A DNA stretch of 64,000 nucleotides, taken from an uncultured Selenomonadaceae bacterium. Lineage in GTDB: Bacteria > Bacillota > Negativicutes > Selenomonadales > Selenomonadaceae. The stretch is from assembly GCA_905235685.1 (NCBI GenBank), contig CAJOMO010000009.1:1-64000 (forward strand), written 5' to 3'. Below are positions 6,963-63,692 of this stretch, piece by piece. The notes beneath the pieces were generated by a model. It saw only the letters and a program-made list of their open reading frames with translations, was not told where the DNA came from and made no database searches. The position numbers were made by a program, and so were the translations under genes. How positions within the stretch are numbered: position 1 is the first letter of the stretch; each line of letters begins with the position of its first letter.

Positions 6963-7064
6963 TATCAACTTTCTTTTATAGTAAAAGAAAGTTGCAAAGA
7001 AAAGCGCGGCGCGGATTGTCACATCACGTGACAAGCGCGCCGCATTGCCGCCCGTCCTTGGGTT
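6963..7064 (+). repeat. Three-hairpin intergenic repeat, copy 1
   Basis: Arm A is an inverted repeat CAACTTTCTTTT/AAAAGAAAGTTG. Arm B is a GC-rich stem around TTGTCACATCACGTGACAA (7-bp stem, 5-base loop) closed by GGCGCG/CGCGCC. Arm C is a shortened GCCGCCC...GGG element. The first 85 bases are almost identical to copies 2 and 3. It lies between two minus-strand genes, in the opposite orientation to both. Confidence 0.85.
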
Positions 7065-7081
7065 TGGTTGTTGTAATTGTT

Positions 7082-8053
7082 TTAGCGGTTTCGATTAATT
7101 ACAAAGTCGGCTGCTTTTTTCAAAGTTAAATTTATTTTGGCGTCAATCGCCGCGGGTAAATTGTTTTTGGCGGCGGCTATGTGATTCTCCGCGCACGTCC
7201 GGCAATATTCAACTGCATCGGTTTCGCGAATTATTTCAACCGCCAATTTGACATCGGCACAAGAAATTTTCTCCTGCGCGATTATCTTTGTCAAAATATC
7301 GGCGCGCGGACTAACTTCCAGCGCCCGAATTATCGGCAAAGTTATCACGCCACTTTTCAAATCGCCGCCTATCGCTTTGCCCGTCACATTTTCCTCACCA
7401 AAAAAATCCAGCAAGTCATCAATTATCTGAAACGCCAAACCTAAATTGCTGCCATATTCGGCAAGATTTTCAATTTCCGCACGCTCAAGTTTCGCCACAA
7501 TTCCGCCCAATCGGCAGCACGTTGACAAAAAAAATGCTGTTTTCAAATTTATTCGCGTGTAATATTCCTCCAGCGTCGGCACTACAAAAAATGACCGGTC
7601 TTGAATTATTTCGCCGAGGCACAAATTTTTTACCAGCTTTGACAAAATCACGCCAACTTCCGCGCCGTAGTCATTTTCCGCCACCAGCTGAAACGCCTTC
7701 GCGAAAAGATAATCGCCAACCAAAACCGCTATCTGCGCGCCGTGCATTGCGTTTATCGTTTCAACGCCGCGCCGCTTTTTCGCGTTGTCCAATATATCGT
7801 CGTGTACCAGGCTTGCCGTGTGAATCAATTCCAGCGCCGCCGCTAACGGTATTTCTTTCGTCGGTGAAAAATTTCTATTCGCGCAGGTGCAGGTTAAAAA
7901 TAACAGCGGGCGCAGTCTTTTTCCGCCGCCGATTAATGGCGCGCAAATTTCCTGTATGAATTTATCTTCGACGACCGCCTGTCCTATGCAATTTTCCAAT
8001 TCCTGCAAATTTATTTTCGTCTCCAACGCAGATATGAAATTCAAAAATCTCAC
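7082..8053 (-). CDS. Polyprenyl diphosphate synthase (heptaprenyl/octaprenyl type)
   Basis: Trans-isoprenyl diphosphate synthase that builds the side chain of quinones or a similar long-chain lipid from IPP. 323 residues. The two Asp-rich motifs are present: the first as HDDILD in LIHTASLVHDDILDNAKKRRG, the second as DDLLD in FQIIDDLLDFFGE, followed by GKAIGGDLKSG. It is the last gene of the long proB-to-here operon, 17 bases after the lytic transglycosylase. Product chain length cannot be read from the sequence. Confidence 0.92.
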   Translation of the reverse strand: MRFLNFISALETKINLQELENCIGQAVVEDKFIQEICAPLIGGGKRLRPLLFLTCTCANRNFSPTKEIPLAAALELIHTASLVHDDILDNAKKRRGVETINAMHGAQIAVLVGDYLFAKAFQLVAENDYGAEVGVILSKLVKNLCLGEIIQDRSFFVVPTLEEYYTRINLKTAFFLSTCCRLGGIVAKLERAEIENLAEYGSNLGLAFQIIDDLLDFFGEENVTGKAIGGDLKSGVITLPIIRALEVSPRADILTKIIAQEKISCADVKLAVEIIRETDAVEYCRTCAENHIAAAKNNLPAAIDAKINLTLKKAADFVINRNR

Positions 8054-8070
8054 CTATTTCAAAAATTTTT

Positions 8071-8685
8071 TCAGTAAACGAACTTCAAACTGGCAAAGCG
8101 CAATTCGCCCAACTCCACCAACTTATAAAAATTTGACCAGCTGTAAAGTTCATTGTACTTTTCGCGGCACTGCAAAACTCGCTTGACATAATTTCGGGTT
8201 TCAGTATAAGGAATGGCGTCAACATCAGAAAAATTTTCCTGCCAACCGTTTTTTTCAATCCAATGGCGAACGTTGCCGCGCCCCGCATTATACGCCGCCA
8301 GCGCCAATATGTCATTTCCAAAAAATTCGTCCTCAAGCTCCGCCAAATACCAAATCCCGTACCGAATGTTCGTGCCGCTGTCACTCAATTTATTCAAAGT
8401 CGGCGGCTCTTCGTCAAGGCAGGACGCTATCCACGCCGCGGTTTCCGGCATTATTTGCATCAAGCCCACCGCGCCGCTTTTCGAACGCGCATTTTCCGTA
8501 AAGTTGCTCTCGACTTTCATTACTGATATTGCCAAAAATCTGTCGACTTGATAACGCGCCGATAAATCCTCCACGGTTTGCCGGTACGGGAACGGGTACA
8601 AAATTTTTTTCTGCGCCGCGGGCAAATTTATCACAAAATAGGCGATTAAGCAGACGGCGAATATTACTGCGAAAAATTTTTTCAA
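8071..8685 (-). CDS. Membrane-anchored lytic transglycosylase (SLT domain)
   Basis: Cleaves peptidoglycan glycan strands with formation of anhydro-muramic ends. 204 residues: an N-terminal signal anchor (about 3-20), then an SLT domain with the catalytic Glu in SVMKVESNF, the GLMQIMPETA motif and the AAYNAG motif. It acts outside the membrane. It is co-oriented with coaE and polyprenyl synthase with gaps of 12 to 17 bases. Confidence 0.93.
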   Translation of the reverse strand: MKKFFAVIFAVCLIAYFVINLPAAQKKILYPFPYRQTVEDLSARYQVDRFLAISVMKVESNFTENARSKSGAVGLMQIMPETAAWIASCLDEEPPTLNKLSDSGTNIRYGIWYLAELEDEFFGNDILALAAYNAGRGNVRHWIEKNGWQENFSDVDAIPYTETRNYVKRVLQCREKYNELYSWSNFYKLVELGELRFASLKFVY

Positions 8686-8697
8686 ACCGAACCCACC

Positions 8698-9300
8698 TTA
8701 ACTGAAATTCAAACGACCATTCAACGCTCTGGTGACTTGTTTATAAATATTGGAGCGATTTTTTTTGTTATTGTTAATGACGACGTCGGCGCGGGCGCAA
8801 ATTTCTTCGACGGACATTTGAGCGTTGACGCGGGCAATTGCCTGCTGATTTGTCAAATTATCGCGTTGACGTAGCCGCCAAATTTGCAAAGCGCGCGGAA
8901 TATGAACCGCCCATATTTCGTCAAATAAAAATTCCCAGCCAGCCTCAAATAGAAGCGGAACTTCGACAACTGCCAATTTCTTGCCGCGATTCGCGCAGTC
9001 CACAAGAAAATCTCTGGTGTAATTTAACAAAATCGGATGCGCCACGGAATTTATCCATTGCCGCTCGTCCGCGTGATTGAAAATAATTTCGCCGATAATT
9101 CGCTTGTTGAGCTGCCCGTCCGCGCCAATAACATATCTTCCGAAATGTTGAACGTAAATTTCAAAAAGCGTACCTTCGGGCAACAAAAGTTTGTGCGTTA
9201 TTTCGTCAATGTCCAAAATCCACGCACCGAATTTCCTAAGCACGAATGAAACCGCAGATTTCCCGCAGGCAATGCCGCCGGTCAGTCCGATGATTAGCAA
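8698..9300 (-). CDS. coaE: Dephospho-CoA kinase
   Basis: Last step of coenzyme A synthesis: ATP-dependent phosphorylation of the 3'-hydroxyl of dephospho-CoA. 200 residues, normal length. P-loop GGIACGKS is at 9-16, with DIDEITHKL and the VVEVPLLFEAGWE segment also present. The start is TTG, preceded by AGGGGG. It lies 12 bases after cvfB in the long operon. Confidence 0.96.
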   Translation of the reverse strand: MLIIGLTGGIACGKSAVSFVLRKFGAWILDIDEITHKLLLPEGTLFEIYVQHFGRYVIGADGQLNKRIIGEIIFNHADERQWINSVAHPILLNYTRDFLVDCANRGKKLAVVEVPLLFEAGWEFLFDEIWAVHIPRALQIWRLRQRDNLTNQQAIARVNAQMSVEEICARADVVINNNKKNRSNIYKQVTRALNGRLNFS

Positions 9301-9312
9301 AAAAATTTCCCC

Positions 9313-10167
9313 CTAAGTCAGCTTGAAGCCGCCGTCAGTTTTCTCAATGAGCCGCTCTTTCAGCAAATGTCCAATCGCACGCTTGAACGCCGCCTTGCTG
9401 ATTTTAAAAACCGCGTAAATTTTTTCCGGCGCGCTCTTGTCGCTAAGATTAATTTTGCCGCCGTTTTCGCGAATAAATTTCAAAATCTTTTCGGCGTCGC
9501 TGTTAATCGCCAGCTCCTTAGATTCTTTGAGCGAGCCGTTGAGCCTGCCGTCTTCGCGAATAAAAGTCACCCGCACGTCAACCACTTCACCGCATTTCAG
9601 CGCCCGCGGAATTTCCTTCTGCGCGATAAACGCAATGTACCGCTCATTCGTAAAGACAAATGCTCCGTCAGCCGTGATATTGAAAATAGCGCCGGTAACT
9701 TTGTCGCCAATCTTAACATTTTCCGCGGGTTTAGAGGCGCGCCGAATTTCATCAGAAACTTTCATTGAAGTTGCAAGCCTGCCGGATTTGTCAATGTACA
9801 ATTTCGCCCAAACCACGTCGCCAATTTTCGGCTTGCCAATCATTTCGGCGAACGGCATAAAAATTCCACGTTCCGCGCCGACTTCCAAAAAAGCGCCGTC
9901 GTCCGTCGTGTTGATAACTTTCAGCCGCGCAATTTGCCCGATTTGCATTTTCGGCACGCGCATTGAAGCGGTTAATCTTTTTTTCGGGTCAAGGTACAAA
10001 AAAACTTCGACAACTTCACCGATATTCACGGGCGCGGTTTGCTGCGTTTTGTGCAAAAGAATATCATCATTGGAATTGCCCGTTCCCGCGTCGAGAAATG
10101 CGCCGAAGTCGCTTTGACGCACGACTTTTAATTTGGCAACCGTCATAGGTTTCAATTCAATCTTCAT
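9313..10167 (-). CDS. cvfB: CvfB-like S1 RNA-binding protein
   Basis: RNA-binding protein of the CvfB/YitL family, with several S1-like domains (each with a 'DFGAFLDAG' or 'DDGAFLEVG' type strand) followed by a C-terminal winged helix. 284 residues from the ATG at 10167. The frame is open further upstream, but that part is the shadow of rsfS. The start overlaps the 3' end of rsfS by 11 bases, which suggests translational coupling. Confidence 0.88.
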   Translation of the reverse strand: MKIELKPMTVAKLKVVRQSDFGAFLDAGTGNSNDDILLHKTQQTAPVNIGEVVEVFLYLDPKKRLTASMRVPKMQIGQIARLKVINTTDDGAFLEVGAERGIFMPFAEMIGKPKIGDVVWAKLYIDKSGRLATSMKVSDEIRRASKPAENVKIGDKVTGAIFNITADGAFVFTNERYIAFIAQKEIPRALKCGEVVDVRVTFIREDGRLNGSLKESKELAINSDAEKILKFIRENGGKINLSDKSAPEKIYAVFKISKAAFKRAIGHLLKERLIEKTDGGFKLT

Positions 10168-10501
10168 AGCGTTTAATCTCGGCGTCGCCCCAAAGTTTTT
10201 CCAGCGCGTAATATTCGCGGTTTTCGTCTTTGAAAATGTGCACAACCACATCGCCATAATCCAGCAAAACCCATTCGCCCTCCTGGTAGCCTTCCTTGTG
10301 GTTGAAATGAACGCCCGCCTCGGCAAGTTTTTCTTCAACGTTATCAGCAATGGCTTTAACCTGCGTAGCCGTCGGCGCGTTGCAGATAACAAAATAATCG
10401 GTGGCGAACATAAGGCCGTGCATATCCATCGTCACGATATTTCCGGCTTTTTTGTCGCTCGCCGCCTTACAAATTTTTTGAATAAGTTCCGTCGTTTCCA
10501 T
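10157..10501 (-). CDS. rsfS: Ribosomal silencing factor RsfS
   Basis: Binds ribosomal protein uL14 and blocks joining of the subunits under starvation. 114 residues from the ATG at 10501, preceded by GGAGTGA at 7 bases. Family features include DMHGLMFATDYFVICNAPT and GEWVLLDYGDVVVHIF. An alternative GTG at 10510 has worse spacing. It lies in the usual order nadD-yqeK-LCP-rsfS. Confidence 0.96.
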   Translation of the reverse strand: METTELIQKICKAASDKKAGNIVTMDMHGLMFATDYFVICNAPTATQVKAIADNVEEKLAEAGVHFNHKEGYQEGEWVLLDYGDVVVHIFKDENREYYALEKLWGDAEIKRYED

Positions 10502-10506
10502 AAAAA

Positions 10507-11514
10507 TCACTCCTCGTCTTCAATAACCGGCTCGTCCGCTATATCGTGTACAGGGAAAAGTTCCTGGATTTTCGCGTCAATTCCTTGAATATCCGGTATC
10601 CAAATTCCCTGTTCGTTTTCGCTGCCTGGCAACATTACGGTTGTCGGCGGGGCGCTGCTCATACTGTGCAAAACGGTTGCCAAATGCGCCGAGTCAAATA
10701 TTTCTGCGCTGGTTTCGATTTGGTTTCTAAAAATATCGGCAATGGCGGGCAATTTCGGTATCGTCTCAAGCTGCAGAACTTTCGCGTAAAACGCTTTGAT
10801 AAATTTTTGTTGACGCTGAACTCTGCCCACGTCGCCTAATTTTTCACTGCGAAATCTCAAATATTTCTGCGCCTCGTCGCCGTTCAAATGTTGATAACCT
10901 TGCCCCAAATGAATCTCTAAGCCGGATTCGGGATCTTCGTAGTCCATATCTTCCTCGACGTAAATATCAATTCCGCCGAAAACGTCAATCAATTCCGCGA
11001 AAGTCGCCATATTAATCACAACGTACTGATGAATCGAAATTCCCAACAAACCCGCCACGTGCCGCACAATCAGACTGGCGCCGCCCCAACTGTACAGCGT
11101 GCCAATCCTGCCCGCCGAAGAATCCGCAGATACCCAAGTATCCCGCGGTATCGAAATTAGCCGCGTCTTGCCTGTGTCATTTGAAAAACTCAGCACCAAA
11201 ATTGTATCGGCTTCCGGTCCGCCGTCGTAGCCGTCGTCAATTCCCAGTATCAAAATATTTGTGTAGCCGTCGAATTTCGGATCTATCTCGCCGGTTCGCG
11301 CAGCGCGCCGCTCGGTGTAGCCCGAATACATTTCCCTAAATTCGTTGTAAATGTGGCTGATTCCGTTGTAAACTCCTAAGCCGATAAATAAAATTGCAGA
11401 GCCGATTAACGCCGTCAATACGCACATAAAAATTCCGCGAAAAAATCTTGTCCTTCGCCGTTTCTTCAAAAATTTGCGTTTCTTTTCAATATTGTCTTGA
11501 GTTGTATTTGCCAT
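10507..11514 (-). CDS. LytR-CpsA-Psr (LCP) family cell-wall ligase
   Basis: Membrane-anchored phosphotransferase that attaches anionic polymers or glycans to the cell wall from a polyprenyl-linked precursor. 335 residues: a short basic cytoplasmic tail with KKRRRTRFF, one membrane segment (about 28-50), and an extracellular LCP domain with NILILGID, EADTILVLSF and LISIPRDTWV. It ends in an acidic tail and lies immediately before rsfS. Confidence 0.93.
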   Translation of the reverse strand: MANTTQDNIEKKRKFLKKRRRTRFFRGIFMCVLTALIGSAILFIGLGVYNGISHIYNEFREMYSGYTERRAARTGEIDPKFDGYTNILILGIDDGYDGGPEADTILVLSFSNDTGKTRLISIPRDTWVSADSSAGRIGTLYSWGGASLIVRHVAGLLGISIHQYVVINMATFAELIDVFGGIDIYVEEDMDYEDPESGLEIHLGQGYQHLNGDEAQKYLRFRSEKLGDVGRVQRQQKFIKAFYAKVLQLETIPKLPAIADIFRNQIETSAEIFDSAHLATVLHSMSSAPPTTVMLPGSENEQGIWIPDIQGIDAKIQELFPVHDIADEPVIEDEE

Positions 11515-11526
11515 TTCAGCAACAGC

Positions 11527-12096
11527 TCACTTTTGCAGTAGTAAAAAATTTCGGGCGGCAATCGTGTCGGGGTGGAGCAAAGTTTTTTTCTGCACAATAA
11601 ATATAATCGATTCGTCAAGCGCCGTCAAAATAATTTCGTCCAGATTCGAAGATTTTTCCGCCAAATCGCGCAGCTTGTCAACGCCTGGATAATTCCTGTT
11701 CGGCTCAATCATATCCGCGAAATAAATAATTTTGTCAAGCGGCGTCATATCGCGCGCGCCGACCGTATGCCGATAAATCGCCTGCGCAATTTCTGTATCT
11801 TCAACGCCGTAAATTTCGCCAATCATTTTCGCGCCGATATAAGCGTGCAACAAAAGCGGCATAGAATTTTCGACTTCGCCAATTTCGATACCGCGCTTAA
11901 TTGCCTCGGCGGGCAAATCTTCATTTTCAAATTCGCGGGCGCAATCGTGCAGCAGTCCGGCGATGTAAGCTTTGTTTTCGTCAACGCCAAATTTTTTCGC
12001 CAACTTGACGGCGGTATTCGCCACGCCGATTGAATGAGCGAATCGACTTGTTTTGAGCCGCCGCTGAAGGGTGCGCCGCATTTCGTCAATCGTCAT
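11527..12096 (-). CDS. yqeK: YqeK-type HD-domain diadenosine tetraphosphatase
   Basis: Predicted symmetrical Ap4A hydrolase of the HD superfamily. 189 residues. Metal-binding residues are visible: His in RFAHSIGVA, His-Asp in LLHDCAREF, and a later HAYIGA motif. Its ATG overlaps the nadD stop by four bases (ATGA), and this pairing with nadD is typical of Firmicutes. Confidence 0.93.
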   Translation of the reverse strand: MTIDEMRRTLQRRLKTSRFAHSIGVANTAVKLAKKFGVDENKAYIAGLLHDCAREFENEDLPAEAIKRGIEIGEVENSMPLLLHAYIGAKMIGEIYGVEDTEIAQAIYRHTVGARDMTPLDKIIYFADMIEPNRNYPGVDKLRDLAEKSSNLDEIILTALDESIIFIVQKKTLLHPDTIAARNFLLLQK

Positions 12097-25936: not shown

Positions 25937-26762
25937 ATGCAACGATTAGGAATTTTAGGGCCGCGCGGAACTCATTCAGAGGCGGCGGCGCTCAAACTTA
26001 ACGAATTTTTATCGAAGAAATTTGAGCCGGTGATTTATCCGGAGATTTTCGAAATATTAAGGCGGCAAATTGGACGCAGGCTTTGTTCCGGTGGAAAATT
26101 CGCTTGAAGGCTCGATAAATATCACGCTCGACACGCTTGCCCGTTCGGAAAATCTAATCGTCACGCGCGAATTGGTTTATCCCGTGCATAATTATTTGAT
26201 GGCGAAAGGCGGCGTTAAACTTTCGGACGTGAAAAAAATTTATTCGCACAGTCAGCCGATTTCACAGTGCCGAAAATTCCTGCGCGAAAATTTTTCAAAC
26301 GCAGAAATAATTTCTACGCCGAGCACTGCGCGCGCCGCTGAAATTGTCGCTGAAACTTTCGACAGCGCCGCCATTTGCACCAAACGCGCCGGTAAATTGA
26401 ACGGCTTAGTAACTCTTGCCACGGAAATTCAAGACAATATGTCGAACAGCACGCGATTTTTTGAAGTCCGTCGTCGCGCAGGAGAAATTAATTCGGACGG
26501 CGATAAGTGCTTGATAATCTGCCAAATCGACGGCTCAAGGGCGGGGGCTTTGTGCGGCGTGCTTGAAGAATTTGCATGGCGGCGCGTGAATATGACGCGC
26601 ATTGAATCACGCCCTGCGCGAACGGAATTAGGCGCGTACATTTTCTTTTTCGATTTGGAAGTTCCGCCGATGAAACATTTGCTGTATGATTCGATTGAAG
26701 ACGTGCGGCGAAAAAGCATTTGGCTTAAGAACTTGGGTATATTTCCCGTAATTCACGCTTAA
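25937..26762 (+). pseudogene. pheA: Prephenate dehydratase, frameshifted near the N-terminus
   Basis: Converts prephenate to phenylpyruvate in phenylalanine synthesis. The ATG at 25937 (site AGCAGGTGG) reads MQRLGILGPRGTHSEAA and continues to about 26059. The rest of the protein is in another frame from 26061: GGKLDAGFVPVENSLEGS, the catalytic-domain signature, then an ACT domain with a variant of the ESRP motif (IESRPA). One extra base or two missing bases between 26057 and 26066 explains it. As written, the first frame stops after 56 residues. It may be decay, sequencing error, or expression of the larger fragment only. Its 3' end is duplicated before aroF. Confidence 0.85.
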
Positions 26763-26785
26763 ATTGGAAGGAGCAAAATTTTTAT
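26701..26785 (+). repeat. pheA 3'-end segment, first copy of an 85-bp direct repeat
   Basis: It covers the last 62 bases of pheA plus the following ribosome binding site. It matches 26833-26917 with one mismatch and an offset of 132 bases. Confidence 0.92.
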
Positions 26786-26832
26786 TCTGCACGAAAGAAA
26801 AGTTTTTTAAAAAAGATTTTTTGAAATTGACA

Positions 26833-26917
26833 ACGTGCGGCGAAAAAGCATTTGGCTTAAGAACTTGGGTATATTCCCCGTAATTCACGCTTAAATTGGA
26901 AGGAGCAAAATTTTTAT
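26833..26917 (+). repeat. pheA 3'-end segment, second copy, running into the aroF start
   Basis: A non-coding repeat of the end of pheA. It carries the GGAAGGAG ribosome binding site and reaches the first two bases of the aroF ATG. The 47 bases between the copies are A/T-rich and otherwise unremarkable. Confidence 0.92.
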
Positions 26918-42699: not shown

Positions 42700-42719
42700 A
42701 GTTAAGTCTCCTAACTACA

Positions 42720-42834
42720 ACAAAGACGCCGACAGGATGTCGGCGCGAACCCGCCGCGCGCTAATGAGCTGGAAGCGAATTAATGCGCGGCTGTTTTCTT
42801 TGCAACTTTCTTTTGCGCCAAAAGAAAGTTGATA
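42720..42834 (-). repeat. Three-hairpin intergenic repeat, copy 6
   Basis: Read on the minus strand from directly after the livG stop: arm A CAACTTTCTTTT/AAAAGAAAGTTG, spacer GCAAAGAAAA, a different middle arm (type B2, with GCTCATTAGCGCGC and ATTAATTCGC), and arm C with GCCGACATCCTGTCGGC. It shares B2 only with copy 7. Confidence 0.8.
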
Positions 42835-43617
42835 TCAATTCATGGATTCAGTGCCGAGATACGCGCGAATAACTTCGGGGTTGTTTTGAATTTCGGCGGG
42901 CGTACCCTCGGCGATAATCATTCCATATTCGAGAACATAAATTCTTTCACAAATGCCCATAACCAGGCTCATATCGTGTTCGATAAGCAAAACCGTTAAG
43001 CCGAACTGTTTTCTAATCCAACGGATCATTTCCATAAGCTCATGAGTTTCTTGCGGATTCATACCCGCCGCCGGTTCGTCCAGCAATAAAAGTTTCGGTT
43101 TCGCCGCCAACGCCCGCGCTATTTCCAATCGCCTCTGCGCGCCGTAGGGTAAATTTTTTGCAACTTCATAGGCGTGTTCGTCCAATTTAAAAATCTTCAG
43201 CAGTTTCAAACTTTCCGCCGTGATTTCATTTTCCTCAGTAAAATATCTGCCCATTCGCAAAACCGTTTCAATCAAACCATATTTCACGTGGCAATGATAC
43301 GCAATTTTAACATTATCCAAAACGCTAAGCTCACTGAACAGCCGGATATTTTGGAAAGTTCGAGCAATGCCGCGCTGCGTAATTTCGTACGGTTTCTGTC
43401 CAACAATCGATTCGCCGTCCAATTGAATATCGCCGGTTGTCGGTACATACACGCCGGTTATCAAATTAAAAATCGTAGTCTTGCCCGCGCCGTTCGGTCC
43501 GATTAACCCGATAAGCTCGCCCTTGTTGATGTAAAAATTAAAATCAGCAACAGCCTTCAAGCCGCCGAATACTTCAGAAACATCTTCCGCCTTCAGTAAC
43601 GGTTTATTTTCCGCCAT
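42835..43617 (-). CDS. livG: Branched-chain amino acid ABC transporter, ATP-binding protein LivG
   Basis: 260 residues from the ATG at 43617, with AGGAGG upstream. Walker A GPNGAGKTT, the LivG-specific LPYGAQRRLEIARAL, Walker B LLLLDEPAAGMNP. It overlaps or nearly touches livM. Copy 6 of the repeat starts immediately after its stop. Confidence 0.95.
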   Translation of the reverse strand: MAENKPLLKAEDVSEVFGGLKAVADFNFYINKGELIGLIGPNGAGKTTIFNLITGVYVPTTGDIQLDGESIVGQKPYEITQRGIARTFQNIRLFSELSVLDNVKIAYHCHVKYGLIETVLRMGRYFTEENEITAESLKLLKIFKLDEHAYEVAKNLPYGAQRRLEIARALAAKPKLLLLDEPAAGMNPQETHELMEMIRWIRKQFGLTVLLIEHDMSLVMGICERIYVLEYGMIIAEGTPAEIQNNPEVIRAYLGTESMN

Positions 43618-49405: not shown

Positions 49406-49424
49406 AAAATTATCCACCAAACAA

Positions 49425-49545
49425 AAAGAGGCGCTCAAGGATGAGCGCCCCCGCGTCGCGCTTGTCACGTGATGCGTGATGTGACAACCCGCGCCGCCCT
49501 TTTCTTTGCTAGGCGTTTCTTTTCAAGAAAAGAAATGCCGAACTG
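49425..49545 (-). repeat. Three-hairpin intergenic repeat, copy 5
   Basis: On the minus strand it begins right after the rpsT stop: arm A CATTTCTTTTC/GAAAAGAAA, the GCAAAGAAAA spacer, a B1 middle arm with an extra 7 bases in its loop (GTCACATCACGCATCACGTGAC), and arm C GGCGCTC/GAGCGCC followed by TCTTTTTG. So it doubles as the rpsT terminator. Confidence 0.85.
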
Positions 49546-52389: not shown

Positions 52390-52530
52390 TATCAACTTTC
52401 TTTTATCGTAAAAGAAAGTTGCAAAGAAAACCGCGGCGCGGATTGTCACATCACGTGACAAGCGCGCCACAGAGCCGCCCGTCCTGCGTGGTTTGCGTAA
52501 GCAAAGCATGCTCCTGGCGGCTTTTTATTT
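52390..52530 (+). repeat. Three-hairpin intergenic repeat, copy 2
   Basis: It starts 7 bases after the flgE stop. Arms A and B are nearly identical to copies 1 and 3. Arm C, GAGCCGCC...GGCGGCTTTTT, holds a nested 26-base insert with a small hairpin TTTGC/GCAAA; the T-run after it makes it a terminator. Nearly the same insert, inverted, sits in arm A of copy 4. Confidence 0.85.
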
Positions 52531-52534
52531 TCGG

Positions 52535-56262: not shown

Positions 56263-56388
56263 CTGGACGCCGCCCAAGGATGGGCGGCGCGAACCCCCGC
56301 CCGCGCCCCTAATGAGCGTGACGCGAATTAATTTAGCGCGGGCGATTTTCTTTGCCAGCGTTTCTTTTCTAAAAAGAAATGCTGAATT
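56263..56388 (-). repeat. Three-hairpin intergenic repeat, copy 7
   Basis: Minus orientation, between the divergent ttcA and CorC-type genes. Arm A CATTTCTTTTT/AAAAGAAACG, the B2 middle arm (ATTAATTCGCGTCACGCTCATTAG core with GCGCGGGCG flanks), arm C GCCGCCCATCCTTGGGCGGC. Close to copy 6 in arm B. A TATAAT for the CorC-type gene lies 16 bases past its edge. Confidence 0.85.
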
Positions 56389-56443: not shown

Positions 56444-57760
56444 TTGGACGTCGTCCCCATAATACTTCAATTTTTATTAGTAGCATTTTTAATTGGAATG
56501 AACGGATTTTTTGTAGCGGCGGAATTTTGCTGCGTGAAAATGCGCCCGTCGCGTTTGGAAACTTTGATTCAAGAAGGCAACAAGCGGGCGGTTTACGCAA
56601 AAAAATTAACCGACGAACTCGACGAAGCTTTATCCGTAACGCAGCTGGGCATAACCTTAGCGTCATTGGGCTTAGGCTGGGTTGGCGAGCCGTTTGTGGC
56701 AGAATTAATCGCGCCGATAACTCATTCGCTGGGTTTGGGAGAAACGCTTGAACACACAATTTCTTTCGCGCTGGCATTTTCGTTAATCACTTCCGCGCAC
56801 ATAATTTTAGGCGAATTGACGCCAAAGTCAATGGCAATCGCAAGCACGGAAACGATTTTGCTGAATATCGCGCTGCCAATGTTAATTTTTTGGAAAGTCA
56901 TGTACCCGTTCGTTATAATGCTGAACGTCACGGCAACTTTCGTATCGAAACATTTGGGCTTGCACCATTCGGGCGAAGGCGAAGTTGCGCATAATCCGGA
57001 AGAAATTCGTTTACTGATGGAGGAAAGCCACAAGCAGGGCTTAGTCGACGATACCGAAGTTGATTTTGTCGATAATGTTTTCGATTTTACCGAATTGAGC
57101 GTGCGCGAAATAATGGTACCGCGAACCGATATGGTTTGCCTGTACGTCAATAAACCCTACGAAGAAAATTTGCAGACGATGCTTGACGAACAAATGACGC
57201 GTTACCCGATTTGCAACGAGGACAAAGATCATATCATTGGATTTTTGCACGTCAAAGATTTAATCACGTGGCGGCTGACGGGCAATAAGCAGCTCAAGCC
57301 GAATTTGGCGAAACTTGCGCGGAAAGTTTTTGTCGTGCCGGAAAGTATGGACGTCAGCGTTTTGCTGAAAATGATGCAAAAAAATCGTTCGCAATTGGCT
57401 ATCGTGGTTGACGAATACGGCGGAACTTCGGGCATGGTTACCATTGAAGATATTGTTGAAAAACTTGTCGGCGATATTCAAGACGAATTTGACGAAGAAC
57501 GCCCCAAATCCGAAAAGCGCGCGGAAAATTTGTATTCGATTGACGCGAAAATGTTGCTTGAAGATCTTGAAGACGAATTTGATATTGAAATTCACGACGA
57601 AGATGTTGACACTGTCGGCGGCTGGCTGAGCGATAAAATTGGCGGCGAGCCGCGCGTCGGTCAAAGCGCCTCCTATGACGGCAATACTTTCTACGTTGAG
57701 GAAGTTGACGGCTTGCGAATTACCCGCGTGCTCTTGAGATTAACTAAAAAATTTAATTAA
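56444..57760 (+). CDS. CNNM/CorC-type membrane protein (hemolysin-like)
   Basis: Inner-membrane protein of the CNNM family linked to Mg or Co efflux. 438 residues: an N-terminal DUF21 domain with four membrane segments (1-190), a CBS pair (VREIMVPRTDMVCL, HVKDLI and EYGGTSGMVTIEDIVEKL), and a C-terminal CorC/HlyC transporter-associated domain. Starts with TTG after AGGAGG. TATAAT at 56405-56410 with TG before it. Confidence 0.92.
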   Translation: MDVVPIILQFLLVAFLIGMNGFFVAAEFCCVKMRPSRLETLIQEGNKRAVYAKKLTDELDEALSVTQLGITLASLGLGWVGEPFVAELIAPITHSLGLGETLEHTISFALAFSLITSAHIILGELTPKSMAIASTETILLNIALPMLIFWKVMYPFVIMLNVTATFVSKHLGLHHSGEGEVAHNPEEIRLLMEESHKQGLVDDTEVDFVDNVFDFTELSVREIMVPRTDMVCLYVNKPYEENLQTMLDEQMTRYPICNEDKDHIIGFLHVKDLITWRLTGNKQLKPNLAKLARKVFVVPESMDVSVLLKMMQKNRSQLAIVVDEYGGTSGMVTIEDIVEKLVGDIQDEFDEERPKSEKRAENLYSIDAKMLLEDLEDEFDIEIHDEDVDTVGGWLSDKIGGEPRVGQSASYDGNTFYVEEVDGLRITRVLLRLTKKFN

Positions 57761-57761: not shown

Positions 57762-57868
57762 TATCAACTTTCTTTTATAGTAAAAGAAAGTTGCAAAGAA
57801 AAGCGCGGCGCGGATTGTCACATCACGTGACAAGCGCGCCGCAGAGCCGCCCGTCCGTGGGCGGCTTC
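57762..57868 (+). repeat. Three-hairpin intergenic repeat, copy 3
   Basis: It begins one base after the CorC-type stop. Arm A CAACTTTCTTTT/AAAAGAAAGTTG, B1 arm with TTGTCACATCACGTGACAA, and arm C GCCGCCCGTCCGTGGGCGGC. It is the cleanest copy. Confidence 0.88.
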
Positions 57869-57900
57869 TGGTTTGTGTTTTTTTAATTAGGGGAAAATTT

Positions 57901-58938
57901 ATGGGGCTAATTAATTTTTTTCGCGATAATACCAACGAATTTGTCGGAGCGTACGGCGACGAAGATAAAATTTTTCTGGCGCGGTTGACTGATAAAATTG
58001 AAACCGCCGAAATTAATTTTGAAATCGACGCGCAAAGCAATATTTCAGCCACTGAACAATTTGCTAAGGCTATCGCCGACGCCTGCGCGAAACGCGGTTG
58101 GAAAACTGCGCGAATCGGAATTTGCCTGCGCGAAGGCGAGGCTACAACTTTTCAAATCGAATTTAACAGCGTCCCCGAAAAGGAAATTCCCGACGCAGTA
58201 AAAACCTGGGCGCTGGCGCACGTCGGCAAAACCGCCCGCTACACTTCAATGAAAATCGGTGACGATATTTGGATGGAAACTTTGCCCGCGTCTATCGTCG
58301 ACGAATATTTTTCCGCCTGTAAAAAATTTTCAATAAAACTTTGCGCCCTAACAGCTTTTCCGGAAACCAATTCAGACCGCGCCGTTACGCCCTTCAACCG
58401 CGCAATTTTCGCCGCAGAAATCATTCAAGCCCGCAAACAGCCCAATATCCTGGCGCAACAATTCAGCGCGTGGAATTTCACAAAAATCTCGTTGACGGCG
58501 GCGGCAATTTTCCTGCTGATAATCGCGGGAATTTCTGCCAAACTCAGCCACGATTATTTTTCAGCGTTCGCGCAGTTGGAATCGGCGCAGGATTTTTTGA
58601 AATCTCAAAGCGAATTTTTGTCGCTCAAAGAAAATCTCGACGCGGACGTTGCCGAAATGAAGCGCCTTAACAATCTTTGCGCAAACCAAAATGTTACCTC
58701 CGAAAATTTTAATCTGCTGTTGAAAATTAGTAAAGTCAGCAACCAAATTAATCTGCGCAAAATGAAAACGACCGGCAAATTTCTGGAACTCGAAGGTTCA
58801 GCCGAAACGCCGGACGCTGTGAAAAATTATTTGAGCCGCTTAAAAACTTCCACGCAGGAAAGCGTTAAGCTGGAAAATTCGCAGATTGACGACGACGCAA
58901 TCAGCTTTACAATTCGCGTCAATTTGCAGTCGCCATAA
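57901..58938 (+). CDS. PilM/PilN- or GspL-like membrane protein
   Basis: 345 residues. Residues 1-190 look soluble (MGLINFFRDNTNEFVGAYGD) with parts like a PilM/GspL actin-like domain. One membrane segment (about 198-216, ISLTAAAIFLLIIAGIS) precedes an outer-side part with a coiled coil (220-265) and a PilN-like ferredoxin-fold end (LRKMKTTGKFLELEGSAETPDAVKNYLSRL). That is the layout of the inner-membrane platform of type IV pili or type II secretion. No other pilus gene is nearby, so the assignment is tentative. AGGGG precedes the ATG. It overlaps the convergent gene by 20 bases. Confidence 0.6.
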   Translation: MGLINFFRDNTNEFVGAYGDEDKIFLARLTDKIETAEINFEIDAQSNISATEQFAKAIADACAKRGWKTARIGICLREGEATTFQIEFNSVPEKEIPDAVKTWALAHVGKTARYTSMKIGDDIWMETLPASIVDEYFSACKKFSIKLCALTAFPETNSDRAVTPFNRAIFAAEIIQARKQPNILAQQFSAWNFTKISLTAAAIFLLIIAGISAKLSHDYFSAFAQLESAQDFLKSQSEFLSLKENLDADVAEMKRLNNLCANQNVTSENFNLLLKISKVSNQINLRKMKTTGKFLELEGSAETPDAVKNYLSRLKTSTQESVKLENSQIDDDAISFTIRVNLQSP

Positions 58939-59824
58939 GCTTAAGAAAATCTTCAAAAATATCGTTGTCAAGTTCGACTTTGCGCGCAGCGGCGGGCGGA
59001 GTCATATTTTTTTTGGCGTCAACGCCCGCGTAATTCAGCAGAAAATGAAATTCGCTGTAGCGCCCAATCGACTCCATCAGCAATTTATCTTCGTTGGTGA
59101 CGTCGGCAGTACCGGCGGCGGCTTCGTCGAGAATATTTTTCGCGTAAGATTTGACAAGCGGCGTTAAATCAATCGCGGCGGAAACCGTTTCGTCAGTCTG
59201 CCTGTCAAAAGTCCACGTGCAAGTCAAATCAGTTGCGTTGAAGGCGGCGGTTAAGTTGTGCAAAAATTTTTTCTGCGCCAAAACTTCCGCCATAGACAGC
59301 GCCGTTGTATCCTGTTCGTCGTCGTATTCGCGCAGAGCCGCGGCAATTTTTTCGCCGCTCACCGTCACGGTGAAAATCCGTTGCGTGTTGGTTTCGCCGA
59401 TAATTTCAACGGCTTTAATATTTTTCTGCAAATCAAGCAAATCAAAATTCGGCAAAGAAAATTTCTGCCACTTCGAGCCGCGCTGAACGTACAGAATCAA
59501 ATTATCGTCGCGCTGTTCAAGGTAAAACGGCATTTTGTTAGCCGCCGCGCGGTTTGTTTCGGGGTTGATATATTCAAACGCCATATCGCCGCTCATTTTC
59601 AAATCGTCGCGCAGGACGCCCTGAGCGCTGATATCGACGTGAAAATTTGTACCGAAAAGCATAATGCTCTGATTAAAGGGGCGCTCATTTGGCGGCGTGG
59701 CAAGGTAAGTTTCTTCAAAAATTTTCTGCGCGGAAGGAATTTCTTCAGCCGTTGCATTCGCGCCGAAAATCAAAATCCCGCCCGTCAAAATCGCCGCTAA
59801 ACTTTTTTTCAATTTAAAATTCAA
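58919..59824 (-). CDS. Secreted protein of unknown function
   Basis: 301 residues. Signal peptide MNFKLKKSLAAILTGGILI... cut near ANA-TA. The mature part is a mixed alpha/beta protein with FHVDISAQGVLRDDLKMSGDMAFEY, resembling LppX/LolA-like folds that carry hydrophobic ligands; this is only a resemblance. TTG start with GGAGGG. It is 12 bases after the FtsA-like gene and could serve the envelope. The 3' end overlaps the convergent PilN-like gene. Confidence 0.65.
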   Translation of the reverse strand: MNFKLKKSLAAILTGGILIFGANATAEEIPSAQKIFEETYLATPPNERPFNQSIMLFGTNFHVDISAQGVLRDDLKMSGDMAFEYINPETNRAAANKMPFYLEQRDDNLILYVQRGSKWQKFSLPNFDLLDLQKNIKAVEIIGETNTQRIFTVTVSGEKIAAALREYDDEQDTTALSMAEVLAQKKFLHNLTAAFNATDLTCTWTFDRQTDETVSAAIDLTPLVKSYAKNILDEAAAGTADVTNEDKLLMESIGRYSEFHFLLNYAGVDAKKNMTPPAAARKVELDNDIFEDFLKLMATAN

Positions 59825-59836
59825 TCAAAGCCCTCC

Positions 59837-62212
59837 TCAATCATTGCGGATAAAATCTTGAATGGTAAGCCTGCGCCGCAATTTCGGTTCGCGGCTATTT
59901 ATCTGATTCGTCGGCATATCTGAAAGTTTCGCCGGAATTTCAATGCTGTTCGCCGTGGAAATAACCGTGCCGTCGGGCGACTTCAAAATCACTTCGAGGG
60001 TATCGCCATTTTTCATAGGCTCGGCAAAATCCGCGTGGACGCCGTTAACTTTAATTTCAAAACTCATGCGGCTGTCCGTTGGCGGCGGTTTGAAATCGAC
60101 AGCCAAAAGCGCGTCGCTAACCGTGGCAACCTGTTTTGCGGATTTGCGATAACTTATCCGCGCGCCGTCGATAATCAGCGTGCTCATATTCGCGGGGCGG
60201 TTATTCACCGTCAAATCGATATTCGACACGGTCGGCACTTCGTACTCTTCGCCGCTGTAAAAAATTTTAATCGAAGAATTGACGCCCGACAAATTCAGCA
60301 CGTCGGAAACGCGCGGGTTGTCATTGGCGATATATTCAATGTTGTCGCCGTCGTGAACCGGCAAAGAAATTTTTGCCTCGACGTCATTCATTAAAATTTT
60401 CGGCGTGCAAGTGTAGCGCAAATCGCGCCCGTTCAGCTGATAGTGCAGTTTAAAATCGGTGGGCGAATATCCGGCAATTCTCAGCACTTCGCCAATCGTA
60501 CTCGCCAGCGAAAGTTTGATATCGTCGCCGTCTTTCAAAATTTGTTCGGGCAAAGCCGCGTCGCCGTTGATAATGACTTTAGCCGTGATTTTAAAAATCT
60601 CGCCGTTGATTTTCACGGTGAAACTCGGCAATTCGGGAACTACGTCGCTGATTTTCAAAACGGGCGGCTCACCGTCAGCGCCGCGTTCGATTTTAATTTT
60701 GCATCTATCCTCAAGCGGCGTCTCAAGTTCGGCGTCTTTGCCATTCATTTTGAGCGTTGCGAAAGTTCCCATACTGCCAGGGAAAAATTTTCTTTCGCCG
60801 TCCACCGTAACCATCAGCGCTAAACCAGGTTTGCCGTTGAATTTTCTAAGCTGAATACCGGCGTTCAAAAGGGCGTCGCGAATCGTCAGCTGTTGGAAAT
60901 GGAACAGCGCGTATTCGTCGTCATTTATATAAACCGTCAAAAAGTGCAGATTATTAATCGAGGCGATTTTCAAAATACCAAGCGGCGTCACGGCGTCGGG
61001 CATACACAATTCTTTTGGAATGCTTGTGATACCGTCAACGACATCGGGCTTGCGGACGCCAACGCGCAATTCGGGCATATTTAAAGCCGCGGCAACGTAT
61101 TTCTGAAGATTGGGCGTCAATGAGCCGCCGCCAACCAACATAACCGCTTGCGGAATATCATTGCCGTTGAGTTCCAAAATCGTCTGCGCAATTTCCGCCG
61201 CCAAATGAGTTATGCTGTCATTAACCTCGCTGATAATTTCTTCGGCAGTCAATTCGTGCGTCGTACCCAAAATATCCGTGAAAGTCGAAGTTTCGCCGTT
61301 AGCCGCCCTGCGCTTAATTTCTTCGGCGATATTAAAATCCAGCAAAAATTTCTGACTGAGCGCCTCGGTAATTTCGTCGCCGGCAATTGGCACCATTCCG
61401 TAAGCAATGACAGAGCCGTTTTTGGTAATGGCGATATCGGAAGTTCCCGCGCCGATATCAACCAAAACTAAATTTAAATGGCGCATTGTGGGCGGAATTA
61501 AAACGTTGATGGCGGCGATTGGCTCTAAGGTTAACGCGCGCATTTCCAAATCGCAGGAACTTAAAGCAACCTGCATTGAATCAATGACTTGACGCGGCAG
61601 GAAAGTTGCGATAACTTTAGCCTTAGCTATTTTTCCGCGCTGACCGATTAAACTTTTCAGCTGAATGCCGTCGAGTTCGTAATTTATGACGCTGAACCCG
61701 ACGCAATAATAACTGGTTTGTTTGGGAATTGTATTTGATTCGGCAAGTTTCGCCTGCGCGAGTTGGACACCGGCGAATTCCAAATTGTTTTGAATTTCGG
61801 GCGTGATAGCGCCGTGAATTTCCATTTCGGCGTCCGCCGTCATAGTGTACAGGGCGCGACCGGCGGCGGCAACTGCTACGCTTTTCAAATCTTCGCCAAT
61901 TTCTTCAACAAGTTCGTCACGCACTTTTTCAATGACTTCAGCAACTTTCGGCACGTCGTGAATTTGACCGTCGAGCATGGCGCGGGTTTTGTGCTCTTCG
62001 CGGCGCGTGGCGATAATTTTTAAGAGACCGCTGGGTTCTTTTTCGGCAACGATACCGATAACGCTGCGCGTCCCGATATCCAGCGCGAAAATTTTTTCGG
62101 TGTCGGCTCTGTCAATTTTATTGCGCGTGGATTTATTTTGTGCGGGAGTTTTTTTAGTTTTGCCGCGTTTGGATTTATCGGCAGCGGTACTCTTAGTTTT
62201 TTTTACGGGCAT
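59837..62212 (-). CDS. FtsA-like actin-fold protein with beta-grasp-like repeat tail
   Basis: 791 residues. A basic tail (residues 1-40) is followed by an FtsA-like ATPase region (about 40-420) with DIGTRSVIGIV, LVDIGAGTSDIAI and MLVGGGSLTP (the phosphate-1, phosphate-2 and adenosine motifs). The C-terminal 370 residues hold a series of about 70-90-residue units that end in patterns like DGDDIKLSLAS, DGDNIEYI and NGDTLEVIL, separated by TIRDALLNAGI or TIGEVLRIAGY; these look like beta-grasp (ubiquitin-like) repeats. It lacks the amphipathic C-terminal helix of FtsA. Probably a scaffold near the division or elongation machinery; inferred. GAGGTGA precedes the ATG. Confidence 0.75.
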   Translation of the reverse strand: MPVKKTKSTAADKSKRGKTKKTPAQNKSTRNKIDRADTEKIFALDIGTRSVIGIVAEKEPSGLLKIIATRREEHKTRAMLDGQIHDVPKVAEVIEKVRDELVEEIGEDLKSVAVAAAGRALYTMTADAEMEIHGAITPEIQNNLEFAGVQLAQAKLAESNTIPKQTSYYCVGFSVINYELDGIQLKSLIGQRGKIAKAKVIATFLPRQVIDSMQVALSSCDLEMRALTLEPIAAINVLIPPTMRHLNLVLVDIGAGTSDIAITKNGSVIAYGMVPIAGDEITEALSQKFLLDFNIAEEIKRRAANGETSTFTDILGTTHELTAEEIISEVNDSITHLAAEIAQTILELNGNDIPQAVMLVGGGSLTPNLQKYVAAALNMPELRVGVRKPDVVDGITSIPKELCMPDAVTPLGILKIASINNLHFLTVYINDDEYALFHFQQLTIRDALLNAGIQLRKFNGKPGLALMVTVDGERKFFPGSMGTFATLKMNGKDAELETPLEDRCKIKIERGADGEPPVLKISDVVPELPSFTVKINGEIFKITAKVIINGDAALPEQILKDGDDIKLSLASTIGEVLRIAGYSPTDFKLHYQLNGRDLRYTCTPKILMNDVEAKISLPVHDGDNIEYIANDNPRVSDVLNLSGVNSSIKIFYSGEEYEVPTVSNIDLTVNNRPANMSTLIIDGARISYRKSAKQVATVSDALLAVDFKPPPTDSRMSFEIKVNGVHADFAEPMKNGDTLEVILKSPDGTVISTANSIEIPAKLSDMPTNQINSREPKLRRRLTIQDFIRND

Positions 62213-62231
62213 TAAAATTCACCTCGCTTTA

Positions 62232-62275
62232 AAAGGTTATTCAGTTTATTTCGCGAATTATTCAAAATAACCTTT
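62232..62275. promoter_or_regulatory. Concentric palindrome in the divergent intergenic region
   Basis: Outer arms AAAGGTTATT and AATAACCTTT are a perfect 10-bp inverted repeat. The 8-bp palindrome TTCGCGAA lies exactly at the same centre. It sits between the divergent FtsA-like and FakA-like genes, so it may be a shared operator. Regulator unknown. Confidence 0.55.
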
Positions 62276-62311
62276 AAAACTTTTGGCAAATTTGAGAAGG
62301 CGGTGCTAAAT

Positions 62312-63550
62312 ATGACTGGCAATAGGGAAGTCATCACCGGCGGAGATTTTAAGCGCATGGTTTCCGGTGCGTACAGCGAATTTCTGCTTGAATACGAAAA
62401 TATAAATTCACAACCTGGCGCGGGAACTTTACCAGGTACACACATTTTGCGAACGATGGGCGCAGCAGTTATGCCGCTTTCTGACGCCAAAGACGACAGC
62501 ATAGGCGGCTTGAGTCGGCGGGTTGCAACGGCGGCTGTATTTGGCGCGCGCGGAAATGCCGGCGTAGTTTTGGCGCAAATGTTTCGCGGTATCGGTACCG
62601 GTTTAATGGGAAAATATGACGCGACCGGCTCTGAATTTGGCAAGGCGTTTCAATACGGAATTTTGTACGCTCAGCGCGTTTTGCCGGACAAATCCGAAAA
62701 TCCTTTCATAACGGTTGCTAAGGCTGTTGCTAAGGGCGCTTATCGCGCAGTGCGTGGCGGTATGCCGATTGCGGAGATTTTGGGCAAAGCAATTGAATCC
62801 GGCGAGAAAATTATTTCGGAAGCCGGAACGAACAATGCAAGCGCGAGCATTATGATTAGTTTTCTTAAGGGCTGCTTGAAGGGCTTGGACGGCAATTTTG
62901 TTTCGCCGACGGTTAGTCTGTCATTGGGGCTCGGCACTCATAAAAATATGCCCGACCCGCGAAATGATTTGGTGCGCCCGTATTGCGTGCGGCTTAGAAT
63001 TAAAAGTTCGAACAGCAATGTTCCGGAGCTTGAGCGGCAAATGAAGGACATCAGCAGTTTTTCAATGGTTGAACGAATGAGCGGCGGGATTGATATTCAC
63101 CTGCACACGGATCACGTTGGCAAGGCGATTGACCAGGCGCTGGGCTGGGGGCAACTCAAAGACGTTAAAATTACGAATATGAGCGAGAGCCACGTTTTGC
63201 CGGTAAATGACGCGTTAGTGAAAGTGGCGGCGCTGGCTGTTGCCAAAGACGCTGACGAGGCGCAGAAATTGCAGGACGCAGGCGCAACAATTTTGGTTTC
63301 GGGCTCTGAAGAATCTTCGCCTTCGACCGCAGAAATTGTTGGAGCGGCGCATTCAGATTTGGCGTCAAGTTATGTTTTAGTTTCGTCGAGTCCGGATTAT
63401 AAATTGGTTTTCAAACAGGCGAAAAAACTTTTGGGCAACCGCGTAGAGTTGGTTTTGGCTGAATCCTTCGAACAAGCCATTTCCGCATTAAAAAAATTTT
63501 CCAAAGCCCTCTCAGCCGTGGAAAATGCTAATATCATGAATCAAATTTAG
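62312..63550 (+). CDS. FakA-like protein with altered nucleotide/Mg motif
   Basis: 412 residues. Resembles FakA, the ATP-binding kinase of the fatty acid kinase system: an N-terminal Dak2-like helical domain with VFGARGNAGVVLAQMFRGI, then a middle and C-terminal part that looks like the DegV-like half. FakA normally has PxxDGDTGTNM near residue 40 for Mg-ATP. Here that place reads SQPGAGTLPGTHILRTM, so the Asp residues are missing. The protein may bind but not phosphorylate. The DegV domain partner is not nearby. The GTG at 62303 is an alternative start. Confidence 0.7.
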   Translation: MTGNREVITGGDFKRMVSGAYSEFLLEYENINSQPGAGTLPGTHILRTMGAAVMPLSDAKDDSIGGLSRRVATAAVFGARGNAGVVLAQMFRGIGTGLMGKYDATGSEFGKAFQYGILYAQRVLPDKSENPFITVAKAVAKGAYRAVRGGMPIAEILGKAIESGEKIISEAGTNNASASIMISFLKGCLKGLDGNFVSPTVSLSLGLGTHKNMPDPRNDLVRPYCVRLRIKSSNSNVPELERQMKDISSFSMVERMSGGIDIHLHTDHVGKAIDQALGWGQLKDVKITNMSESHVLPVNDALVKVAALAVAKDADEAQKLQDAGATILVSGSEESSPSTAEIVGAAHSDLASSYVLVSSSPDYKLVFKQAKKLLGNRVELVLAESFEQAISALKKFSKALSAVENANIMNQI

Positions 63551-63692
63551 TATCAGCATTTCTTTTCTCGAAAAGTACTAAAGAGCACGCTTTGCTACGC
63601 AAACCGCGCAACGCTGGCAAAGAAAAGGGCGGCGCGGGTTGTCACATCACGTGACAAGCGCGCCGCGGGGGCGCTCATCCTTGAGCGCCTCT
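63551..63692 (+). repeat. Three-hairpin intergenic repeat, copy 4
   Basis: It begins at the base after the FakA-like stop. The left part of arm A is TATCAGCATTTCTTTTCTCGAAAAG; a 35-base segment is inserted between GAAAAG and AACGCTGG, with GCACGCTTTGCTACGC and a TTTGC/GCAAA hairpin, nearly identical to the (inverted) insert of copy 2. Arm B is B1, arm C is GGCGCTC/GAGCGCC. Convergent with purA. Confidence 0.85.

What the first reader, a model, noticed from the sequence alone, without database searches (positions are those of the whole stretch)
6963..63692. Seven-copy family of modular three-hairpin intergenic repeats
Seven 100-145 bp elements at 6963-7064, 52390-52530, 57762-57868 and 63551-63692 (plus) and 49425-49545, 42720-42834 and 56263-56388 (minus). 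Each is built as arm A (TTTCTTTT/AAAAGAAA), spacer GCAAAGAAAA, arm B and arm C. Arm B exists in two unrelated types: B1 around TTGTCACATCACGTGACAA (copies 1-5) and B2 around GCTCATTAG...ATTAATTCGC (copies 6 and 7). Arm C always folds. Copies 2 to 6 start within a few bases after a stop codon; copies 1 and 7 do not. About one per 9 kb suggests hundreds per genome, as with REPIN- or MITE-like elements; no RAYT or transposase gene is in the window. The combinatorial arms are the odd part.
Basis: partly seen in the sequence, partly recalled or inferred. Interest (0 to 1): 0.75.

Follow-up and report, generated by a model that had tools for sequence, protein, structure and literature searches.

The report
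Modular triplex-armed gene-end repeats
A rumen-type bacterium carries at least 117 copies of a three-part, terminator-like DNA repeat just after its genes; its first arm has the exact mirror-image sequence needed for a three-stranded helix, and related species keep the repeats at the same places while swapping the arms.

Summary
All seven window copies exist. A covariance model finds at least 117 copies in this 1.96-Mb Selenomonadaceae genome and copies in 19 of 24 sampled congeners, but none in 16 genomes of other families. The REPIN/MITE reading is not supported: no Y1 transposase or reverse transcriptase gene was found, and at 35 sites alignable to a 90%-identical species, 29 carry an element, in the same orientation wherever I could check (28). 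Those orthologues are usually different arm types (74% identity; flanks 85-89%), while paralogues in the same genome are closer in 28 of 29 cases, so arms turn over by exchange between copies.

Elements abut stop codons and fill 73% of convergent, 39% of tandem and 12% of divergent gaps. C plus T-tract, and B read backwards plus TTTTCTTT, suit a two-way terminator.

The 'spacer' is the exact mirror image of arm A's purine strand in 153 of 153 parsed copies and covaries with it across species (p=5e-4): the signature of a potential intrastrand triplex. In distant congeners and scattered other phyla the loop of A also pairs with bases after the spacer, giving an H-type pseudoknot. Function is inferred; no RNA data were available.

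The parts
6963..7062 (+). Copy 1: arm A 6966-6994, mirror spacer 6994-7003, arm B 7006-7043, truncated arm C 7047-7062
   Evidence: CM hit C9:6964-7072
52390..52531 (+). Copy 2: arm A 52393-52421, spacer 52421-52430, arm B 52435-52468, arm C 52472-52531 interrupted by the nested module in reverse orientation; between convergent genes
   Evidence: orthologous site in G069 occupied by other arm types
57762..57869 (+). Copy 3: arm A 57765-57793, spacer 57793-57802, arm B 57805-57842, arm C 57845-57869; 1-2 nt after the stop of the gene ending at 57760
   Evidence: only a short remnant in L031/G069 and L032
63551..63692 (+). Copy 4: arm A 63554-63616 interrupted by the nested module TACTAAAGAGCACGCTTTGCTACGCAAACCGCGCA, spacer 63617-63626, arm B 63629-63666, arm C 63667-63692; between convergent genes
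49423..49545 (-). Copy 5: arm A 49512-49540, spacer 49500-49509, arm B 49453-49497 (7-nt duplication CATCACG in the loop), arm C 49423-49452; between convergent genes
42718..42834 (-). Copy 6: arm A 42803-42831, spacer 42794-42803, B2-type arm B 42753-42791, arm C 42718-42747; starts right after the stop of the gene ending at 42835
56263..56388 (-). Copy 7: arm A 56356-56384, spacer 56346-56355, B2-type arm B 56298-56344, arm C 56265-56291; between divergent genes (rare context)
   Evidence: orthologous sites in L031 and L032 hold different arms

Best explanation
The copies are one genus-restricted family of about 110-nt gene-end elements, probably working as two-way transcription terminators and mRNA 3'-end structures. 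Read forward, arm C (GC hairpin plus T tract) ends the upstream gene's transcript. Read backward, arm B (GC hairpin) followed by TTTTCTTT (the complement of the spacer) ends the transcript of the gene coming from the other side. Arm A plus spacer is a potential intrastrand triplex: a pyrimidine-purine hairpin followed by the exact mirror image of its purine strand. In more distant species it is closed by a second helix between the loop and the bases after the spacer (an H-type pseudoknot). In RNA the triple-helix rules fit best on the reverse strand (U.A-U and C+.G-C, as in a telomerase-type pseudoknot). Once at a site, an element stays there in the same orientation, while its arms are replaced by copying from other elements (gene conversion or another short-patch exchange), which makes the combinations. 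Shown: anatomy, copy number, position after stop codons, mirror covariation, loop/post-spacer covariation, fixed sites with arm turnover. Inferred: termination, actual triplex folding, the conversion mechanism.
For: Copy number and range: 117 copies in own genome; 19 of 24 sampled congeners, 0 of 16 other-family genomes. Context: 84 of 117 have the upstream gene co-oriented, mostly ending 0-10 nt before the element; gaps >=60 nt holding an element: convergent 41/56, tandem 58/148, divergent 6/50 (the flanks were fetched around elements, so absolute fractions are inflated, but the contrast between classes is not explained by that). Terminator anatomy: mean 4.5 T in the 8 nt after arm C; 5-7 T in most copies in the first 8 nt after arm B read backwards. 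Mirror: 153/153 parsed copies (own genome with a dozen representative forms, plus G069) have a mirror of at least 7 nt; over 57 distinct purine-run/spacer pairs native mirror 9.09 vs 7.77 swapped (p=5e-4); mirror longer than direct copy 41:4. Asymmetric cases such as AAAGAAAAA/AAAAAGAAA and AAAAGAAAAA/AAAAAGAAAA rule out simple Watson-Crick refolding. Pseudoknot: loops of 6 nt or more have 4 bp or more with post-spacer bases in 26/34 forms vs 10.4 swapped, p=2e-4; independent viral-contig set p=2e-4. Arm turnover: elements at 29 of 35 orthologous sites, 28 same orientation and one undetermined, orthologue identity 0.74 vs best paralogue 0.93, flanks 0.89/0.85. B and C stems covary.
Against: No transcript data: termination is inferred from anatomy only. 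Wobble pairs in the pseudoknot helix show no strand preference (plus 14, minus 9 of 55), so the folding molecule could be DNA or RNA of either strand. In the window's own species, hairpin-A loops are short or uncomplementary, so the second helix is not supported there. The closest tested kind, E. coli PIT elements, showed no terminator activity (reported in PMC4666352). Six elements lie between divergent genes. The genomes are draft assemblies; short-read misjoining between copies could create some arm swaps.
Confidence: 0.5

Rival explanations
1. A selfish mobile repeat (MITE- or REPIN-like) that inserts just after stop codons, mobilised by an enzyme encoded elsewhere; structure is needed for mobility, and modules recombine as by-products.
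For: Over 100 near-identical copies; patchy presence across congeners; nested module inside arms; a composite copy at C5:~81,440; in Caballeronia the same arm sits as inverted pairs at the ends of a ~500-nt mosaic repeat.
Against: No Y1_Tnp or RVT_1 in the genome; no terminal inverted repeats or target duplications seen; 29/35 sites shared with a 90%-identical species, same orientation wherever determined; most other orthologous sites hold deletion remnants rather than clean empty sites.
Confidence: 0.25
2. A DNA-level device: triplex/cruciform-prone sequence at gene ends (like BIME or PIT elements) that absorbs supercoiling or marks ends of transcription units, with no role in RNA.
For: Mirror-repeat purine tract, inverted repeats, convergent-gap enrichment; no strand preference of wobble pairs; in tandem contexts both orientations occur (36 vs 25); purine-motif triplexes form in DNA, not RNA (stated in PMC4666352).
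Against: Arm C is more stable on the plus strand in 102/109 copies and is followed by T tracts; arm B read backwards is followed by TTTTCTTT; start within 0-10 nt of stop codons fits transcript ends.
Confidence: 0.2
3. Ordinary unrelated terminators that merely look alike.
For: Arm C alone resembles a normal intrinsic terminator.
Against: Up to 98% identity between distant copies over the whole element, shared A-spacer-B-C order, mirror covariation, 0 matches of the arm-A mirror pattern in 398 other Bacillota genomes.
Confidence: 0.02

Closest known systems
PIT / ITxF class II intrastrand triplex motifs (TM-ECO, BoxC of E. coli; PMC4666352)
   Same: Pyrimidine strand, purine strand and mirror purine strand in order on one DNA strand; repeated, intergenic, associated with local sequence variability.
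   Different: A/T-rich instead of G/C-rich, embedded in a three-arm element with B and C, tied to gene ends, mirror covarying over many sequences, and in relatives closed by a pseudoknot helix. PIT elements showed no terminator activity and no strand bias.
BOX elements of Streptococcus pneumoniae (PMC3049150)
   Same: More than 100 intergenic copies, modular A-B-C build, folded RNA predicted.
   Different: Unrelated in build: BOX varies in the number of B modules, here one B of several alternative types; BOX has terminal inverted repeats and target duplications, none seen here.
SPRITE (S. [quoted passage not shown]
   Same: Repeat family that looks like a terminator.
   Different: Single stem and U tract, AT-rich, 30 copies; no triplex arm or arm exchange described.
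Triple-helix pseudoknots such as telomerase RNA or the SAM-V riboswitch (PMC6061858 for SAM-V; telomerase from general knowledge)
   Same: H-type pseudoknot topology with a U-rich loop placed to make U.A-U and C+.G-C triples when the reverse strand is read.
   Different: No ligand or enzyme context; over 100 genomic copies; folding not tested.
REPIN/REP with RAYT
   Same: Many short palindromic intergenic copies.
   Different: No Y1 transposase in the genome; different length, motif and arrangement; stable sites with arm turnover.

Membership tests
REPIN / RAYT system | Y1 (HUH) transposase RAYT in the genome | tested here: not met
   PF01797 search of own genome, 0 matches; controls ring
MITE | Terminal inverted repeats and target-site duplications | tested here: not met
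   None seen in the copies or at sites compared with G069/L031/L032; few clean empty sites, so target duplications were only weakly testable
BOX element | boxA/boxB/boxC sequence homology | not tested
   No comparison with BOX models was run; only architecture was compared, from PMC3049150
Intrastrand triplex motif, class II (ITxF criteria: stems 6-15, loops 1-6) | Py, Pu and mirror Pu stems in order | tested here: met
   153/153 parsed copies with mirror >=7 nt; second loop is 5 nt in CAAC-type arms, 7-8 nt in GGCA-type arms, so the strict loop limit is met only by the former
Intrastrand triplex motif, class II (ITxF criteria: stems 6-15, loops 1-6) | Physical triplex formation | not testable with these tools
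   Needs CD, NMR or footprinting
Intrinsic terminator | GC-rich hairpin directly followed by a U tract | tested here: met
   Arm C: mean 4.5 T in the next 8 nt; reverse arm B: 5-7 T in most copies
Intrinsic terminator | Ends transcription in vivo | not testable with these tools
   No RNA data
H-type pseudoknot | Covarying helix between hairpin loop and downstream bases | tested here: met
   In long-loop congeners and viral contigs; not supported in the window's own species
Rfam families | Match at gathering score | tested here: not met
   Window matches only two tRNAs; loci with the outside module have no match at gathering score

The most novel reading that the evidence does not exclude
Arm A plus spacer is an undescribed, phylogenetically scattered structural module: a mirror-repeat triplex hairpin locked by a pseudoknot helix. 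It occurs in Selenomonadaceae, Fusobacteria, Burkholderiales, Pasteurellaceae and viral contigs, is built into different mosaic repeats, and in this genus forms gene-end cassettes whose sites are fixed while their arms are rewritten by exchange among over 100 copies.
Probability: 0.35. Interest if true: 0.85.

Novelty: new variant of a known kind. Interest (0 to 1): 0.7.

Why it matters
Bacterial intergenic repeats are usually read either as parasites or as leftover structure. Here position and orientation are conserved while the interior is swapped, and sequence evolution itself reports a three-stranded relation (mirror covariation), which earlier work on PIT elements lacked. That makes an open question testable: whether triplex or pseudoknot structures at gene ends work in living bacteria, and how more than 100 dispersed copies are kept in step.

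Tried and rejected
RAYT and reverse transcriptase as mobilisers: absent. Element in plasmid and phage collections by blastn: no match. First viral scan on the spacer half only: 20 hits without the pyrimidine strand, chance or coding. Alternative Watson-Crick pairing of spacer with the pyrimidine strand (RNAalifold's choice): rejected because asymmetric forms mirror rather than copy (asymmetric viral pattern mirror 11 vs direct 3, the three being symmetric; the less asymmetric pattern pair gave 43 vs 27 with much overlap). Deciding the RNA strand from G.U versus A.C: no bias; arm A alone is more stable on minus (97/109), arm C on plus (102/109). MAFFT alignment A2 of long-loop forms was out of structural register, so pair counts on it were not used. 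Two elements of G069 thought to be without a counterpart proved to have one.
Full report
Observation. The seven elements are present at the stated places. The window is contig C9:1-64000 of a 1.96-Mb, 64-contig, 99.8% complete genome. Its nearest named relatives are uncultured Selenomonadaceae from red deer. A blast with copy 3 finds 40 scored copies; an exact pattern for arm A finds 81; a covariance model built from 18 copies finds 117. This is a lower bound, because contigs C1, C4 and C46 end inside copies and a composite copy at C5:~81,440 was not listed. The model finds the family in 19 of 24 other sampled genomes of the genus and in 0 of 16 genomes of other families.

Anatomy. Every copy reads A - spacer - B - C. 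A is a pyrimidine/purine hairpin (CAACTTTCTTTT..AAAAGAAAGTTG or GGCATTTCTTTT..AAAAGAAACGCC, with longer TTTCTTTCTTTT and shorter TTTCTTTC forms). B is a GC-rich stem with an inner stem and an ATCAC, TTCAC or TTCC loop; its types intergrade, so 'two unrelated types' is too simple. C is a GC hairpin with loop CATCCTTG, CGTCCGTG or similar, usually followed by T's. Stems of B and C change on both sides while pairing is kept (13 of 28 pairs). A nested ~36-nt palindromic module (TACTAAAGAGCAYGC..GCAAGCCACGCA) occurs 16 times in the fetched stretches, always inside an element, in A, B or C.

The spacer. The spacer is the mirror image of A's purine strand: AAAAGAAACG...GCAAAGAAAA. Across genomes the purine core takes many forms, each followed by its mirror: AAAAGAAA/AAAGAAAA, AAAGAAAA/AAAAGAAA, AAAAGAAAAA/AAAAAGAAAA, AAAGAAAAA/AAAAAGAAA, AAAAGAGAAA/AAAGAGAAAA, GAAAGAAA/AAAGAAAG and longer ones. 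The patterns used to harvest these did not constrain the spacer. All 153 parsed copies labelled own genome or G069 have a mirror of at least 7 nt. Over 57 distinct pairs the native mirror is 9.09 nt against 7.77 when partners are swapped (p=5e-4), and mirror beats direct copy 41 to 4. Direct or inverted duplication does not make mirror repeats, so this points to selection for a three-stranded relation: A.A-T and G.G-C on the plus strand as DNA, or U.A-U and C+.G-C on the minus strand as RNA. PMC4666352 describes this arrangement as a class II intrastrand triplex and reports that pyrimidine-type, not purine-type, triplexes occur in RNA.

Pseudoknot. In congeners with hairpin-A loops of 6 nt or more, the loop is complementary to the bases right after the spacer: CGCCC/GGGCG, AAGCCC/GGGCTT, GCGTC/GACGC, GTACC/GGTGC, GCAG/CTGC, GCGG/CCGC. 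Helices of 4 bp or more occur in 26 of 34 forms against 10.4 when swapped (p=2e-4). This is an H-type pseudoknot, mostly with no gap between the helix and the triplex strands. The window's own species has short or uncomplementary loops and does not show it. Wobble pairs do not tell the strand.

Context. In own genome 84 of 117 elements follow a co-oriented gene, mostly 0-10 nt after its stop codon; in (-,-) contexts the C end abuts the stop of the next gene. Gaps of 60 nt or more hold an element in 41/56 convergent, 58/148 tandem and 6/50 divergent cases (flanks were chosen around elements, so only the contrast counts; genes were called by a simple codon-usage finder). Arm C is followed by 4.5 T in 8 nt on average; reverse arm B by 5-7 T in most copies. 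Together this suits a two-way terminator.

Evolution. G069 (Red_deer_4_mag_35) has flanks about 90% identical. Of 35 own sites with both flanks alignable in the 745 kb sampled, 29 hold an element; 28 of these have the same orientation and one could not be determined. Five others hold remnants and one is empty. Orthologous elements are only 74% identical over their length, against 93% for the best paralogue in own genome; a paralogue is closer in 28 of 29 cases. In a separate alignment, positions inside the element agree at 70%, against 89% and 85% in the 200-nt flanks. A and B types reassort (26:5 and 18:7 for the two common A types with two common B types), except that the long A form goes with one B type (13 of 13). 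The simplest account is replacement of arms by copying from other elements at fixed sites. Misassembly of short reads is a caveat.

Mobility. Own genome has no Y1 transposase and no RVT_1. No terminal inverted repeat or target duplication was seen. Blastn finds no copy in plasmid or phage collections.

Beyond the genus. The mirror-hairpin pattern is absent from 398 other Bacillota genomes but occurs in 43 viral-contig stretches, where the loop/post-spacer helix is again supported (p=2e-4), and in Ilyobacter, Caballeronia, Variovorax and Pasteurella replicons; where gene tables exist (Ilyobacter, Variovorax, Pasteurella) it is intergenic. In Caballeronia and Pasteurella it forms inverted pairs 370-460 nt apart; in Caballeronia these are the ends of a mosaic non-coding repeat. 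Common descent versus convergence was not resolved.

Literature. No description was found for intergenic repeats in Selenomonas or for these sequences in open papers. Closest are BOX and SPRITE (PMC3049150) and PIT/ITxF motifs (PMC4666352). Subscription papers were not searchable, so absence of a prior description is not proven.

Verdict. Real, structured, genus-restricted family; first-reader label partly right. Best reading: gene-end two-way terminator-like elements with a triplex arm and arm exchange at fixed sites.

Noticed in passing
L276, L292-L320 (Caballeronia sp. NK8 pNK81): A ~500-nt non-coding mosaic repeat bounded by inverted copies of the triplex-pseudoknot arm (TTTCTTTGCTGCTGCAAAGAAAGTAACCAAAGAAAGCAGC), with alternative internal blocks; 19 arm copies in one replicon.
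   Followed up: partly
L277 1503-1920 (Pasteurella multocida plasmid record): Two triplex-pseudoknot arms in inverted orientation 370 nt apart between DUF484 and dapF genes; one is the asymmetric mirror form.
   Followed up: partly
L275 and W01 (Ilyobacter polytropus pILYOP01): Seven copies of the same arm in a Fusobacteriota replicon; one has a different loop (CTTGAT) whose downstream bases also pair.
   Followed up: no
window 63575-63610; 52484-52520; L028, L048, L053: Nested ~36-nt palindromic module TACTAAAGAGCAYGC(C/T)TTGC..GCAAGCCACGCA inserted in arms A, B or C, both orientations; 16 in fetched stretches, all inside elements.
   Followed up: partly
L323 around 2260-2480 (own C5:~81,440): Composite copy: the start of one A arm is followed by a complete second element of another type; no CM hit was listed there.
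   Followed up: partly
window 1-58 and 218-275: 58-nt direct repeat, 98% identical, 217 nt apart, at the start of the window (D20).
   Followed up: no
window 26694-26785 and 26826-26917: 92-nt direct repeat, 97% identical, 132 nt apart, around the end of one open frame and the start of the next (D7).
   Followed up: no
own contigs C1 end, C4 start, C46 end: Contigs stop inside elements, so the repeats limit the assembly and copy number is undercounted.
   Followed up: no
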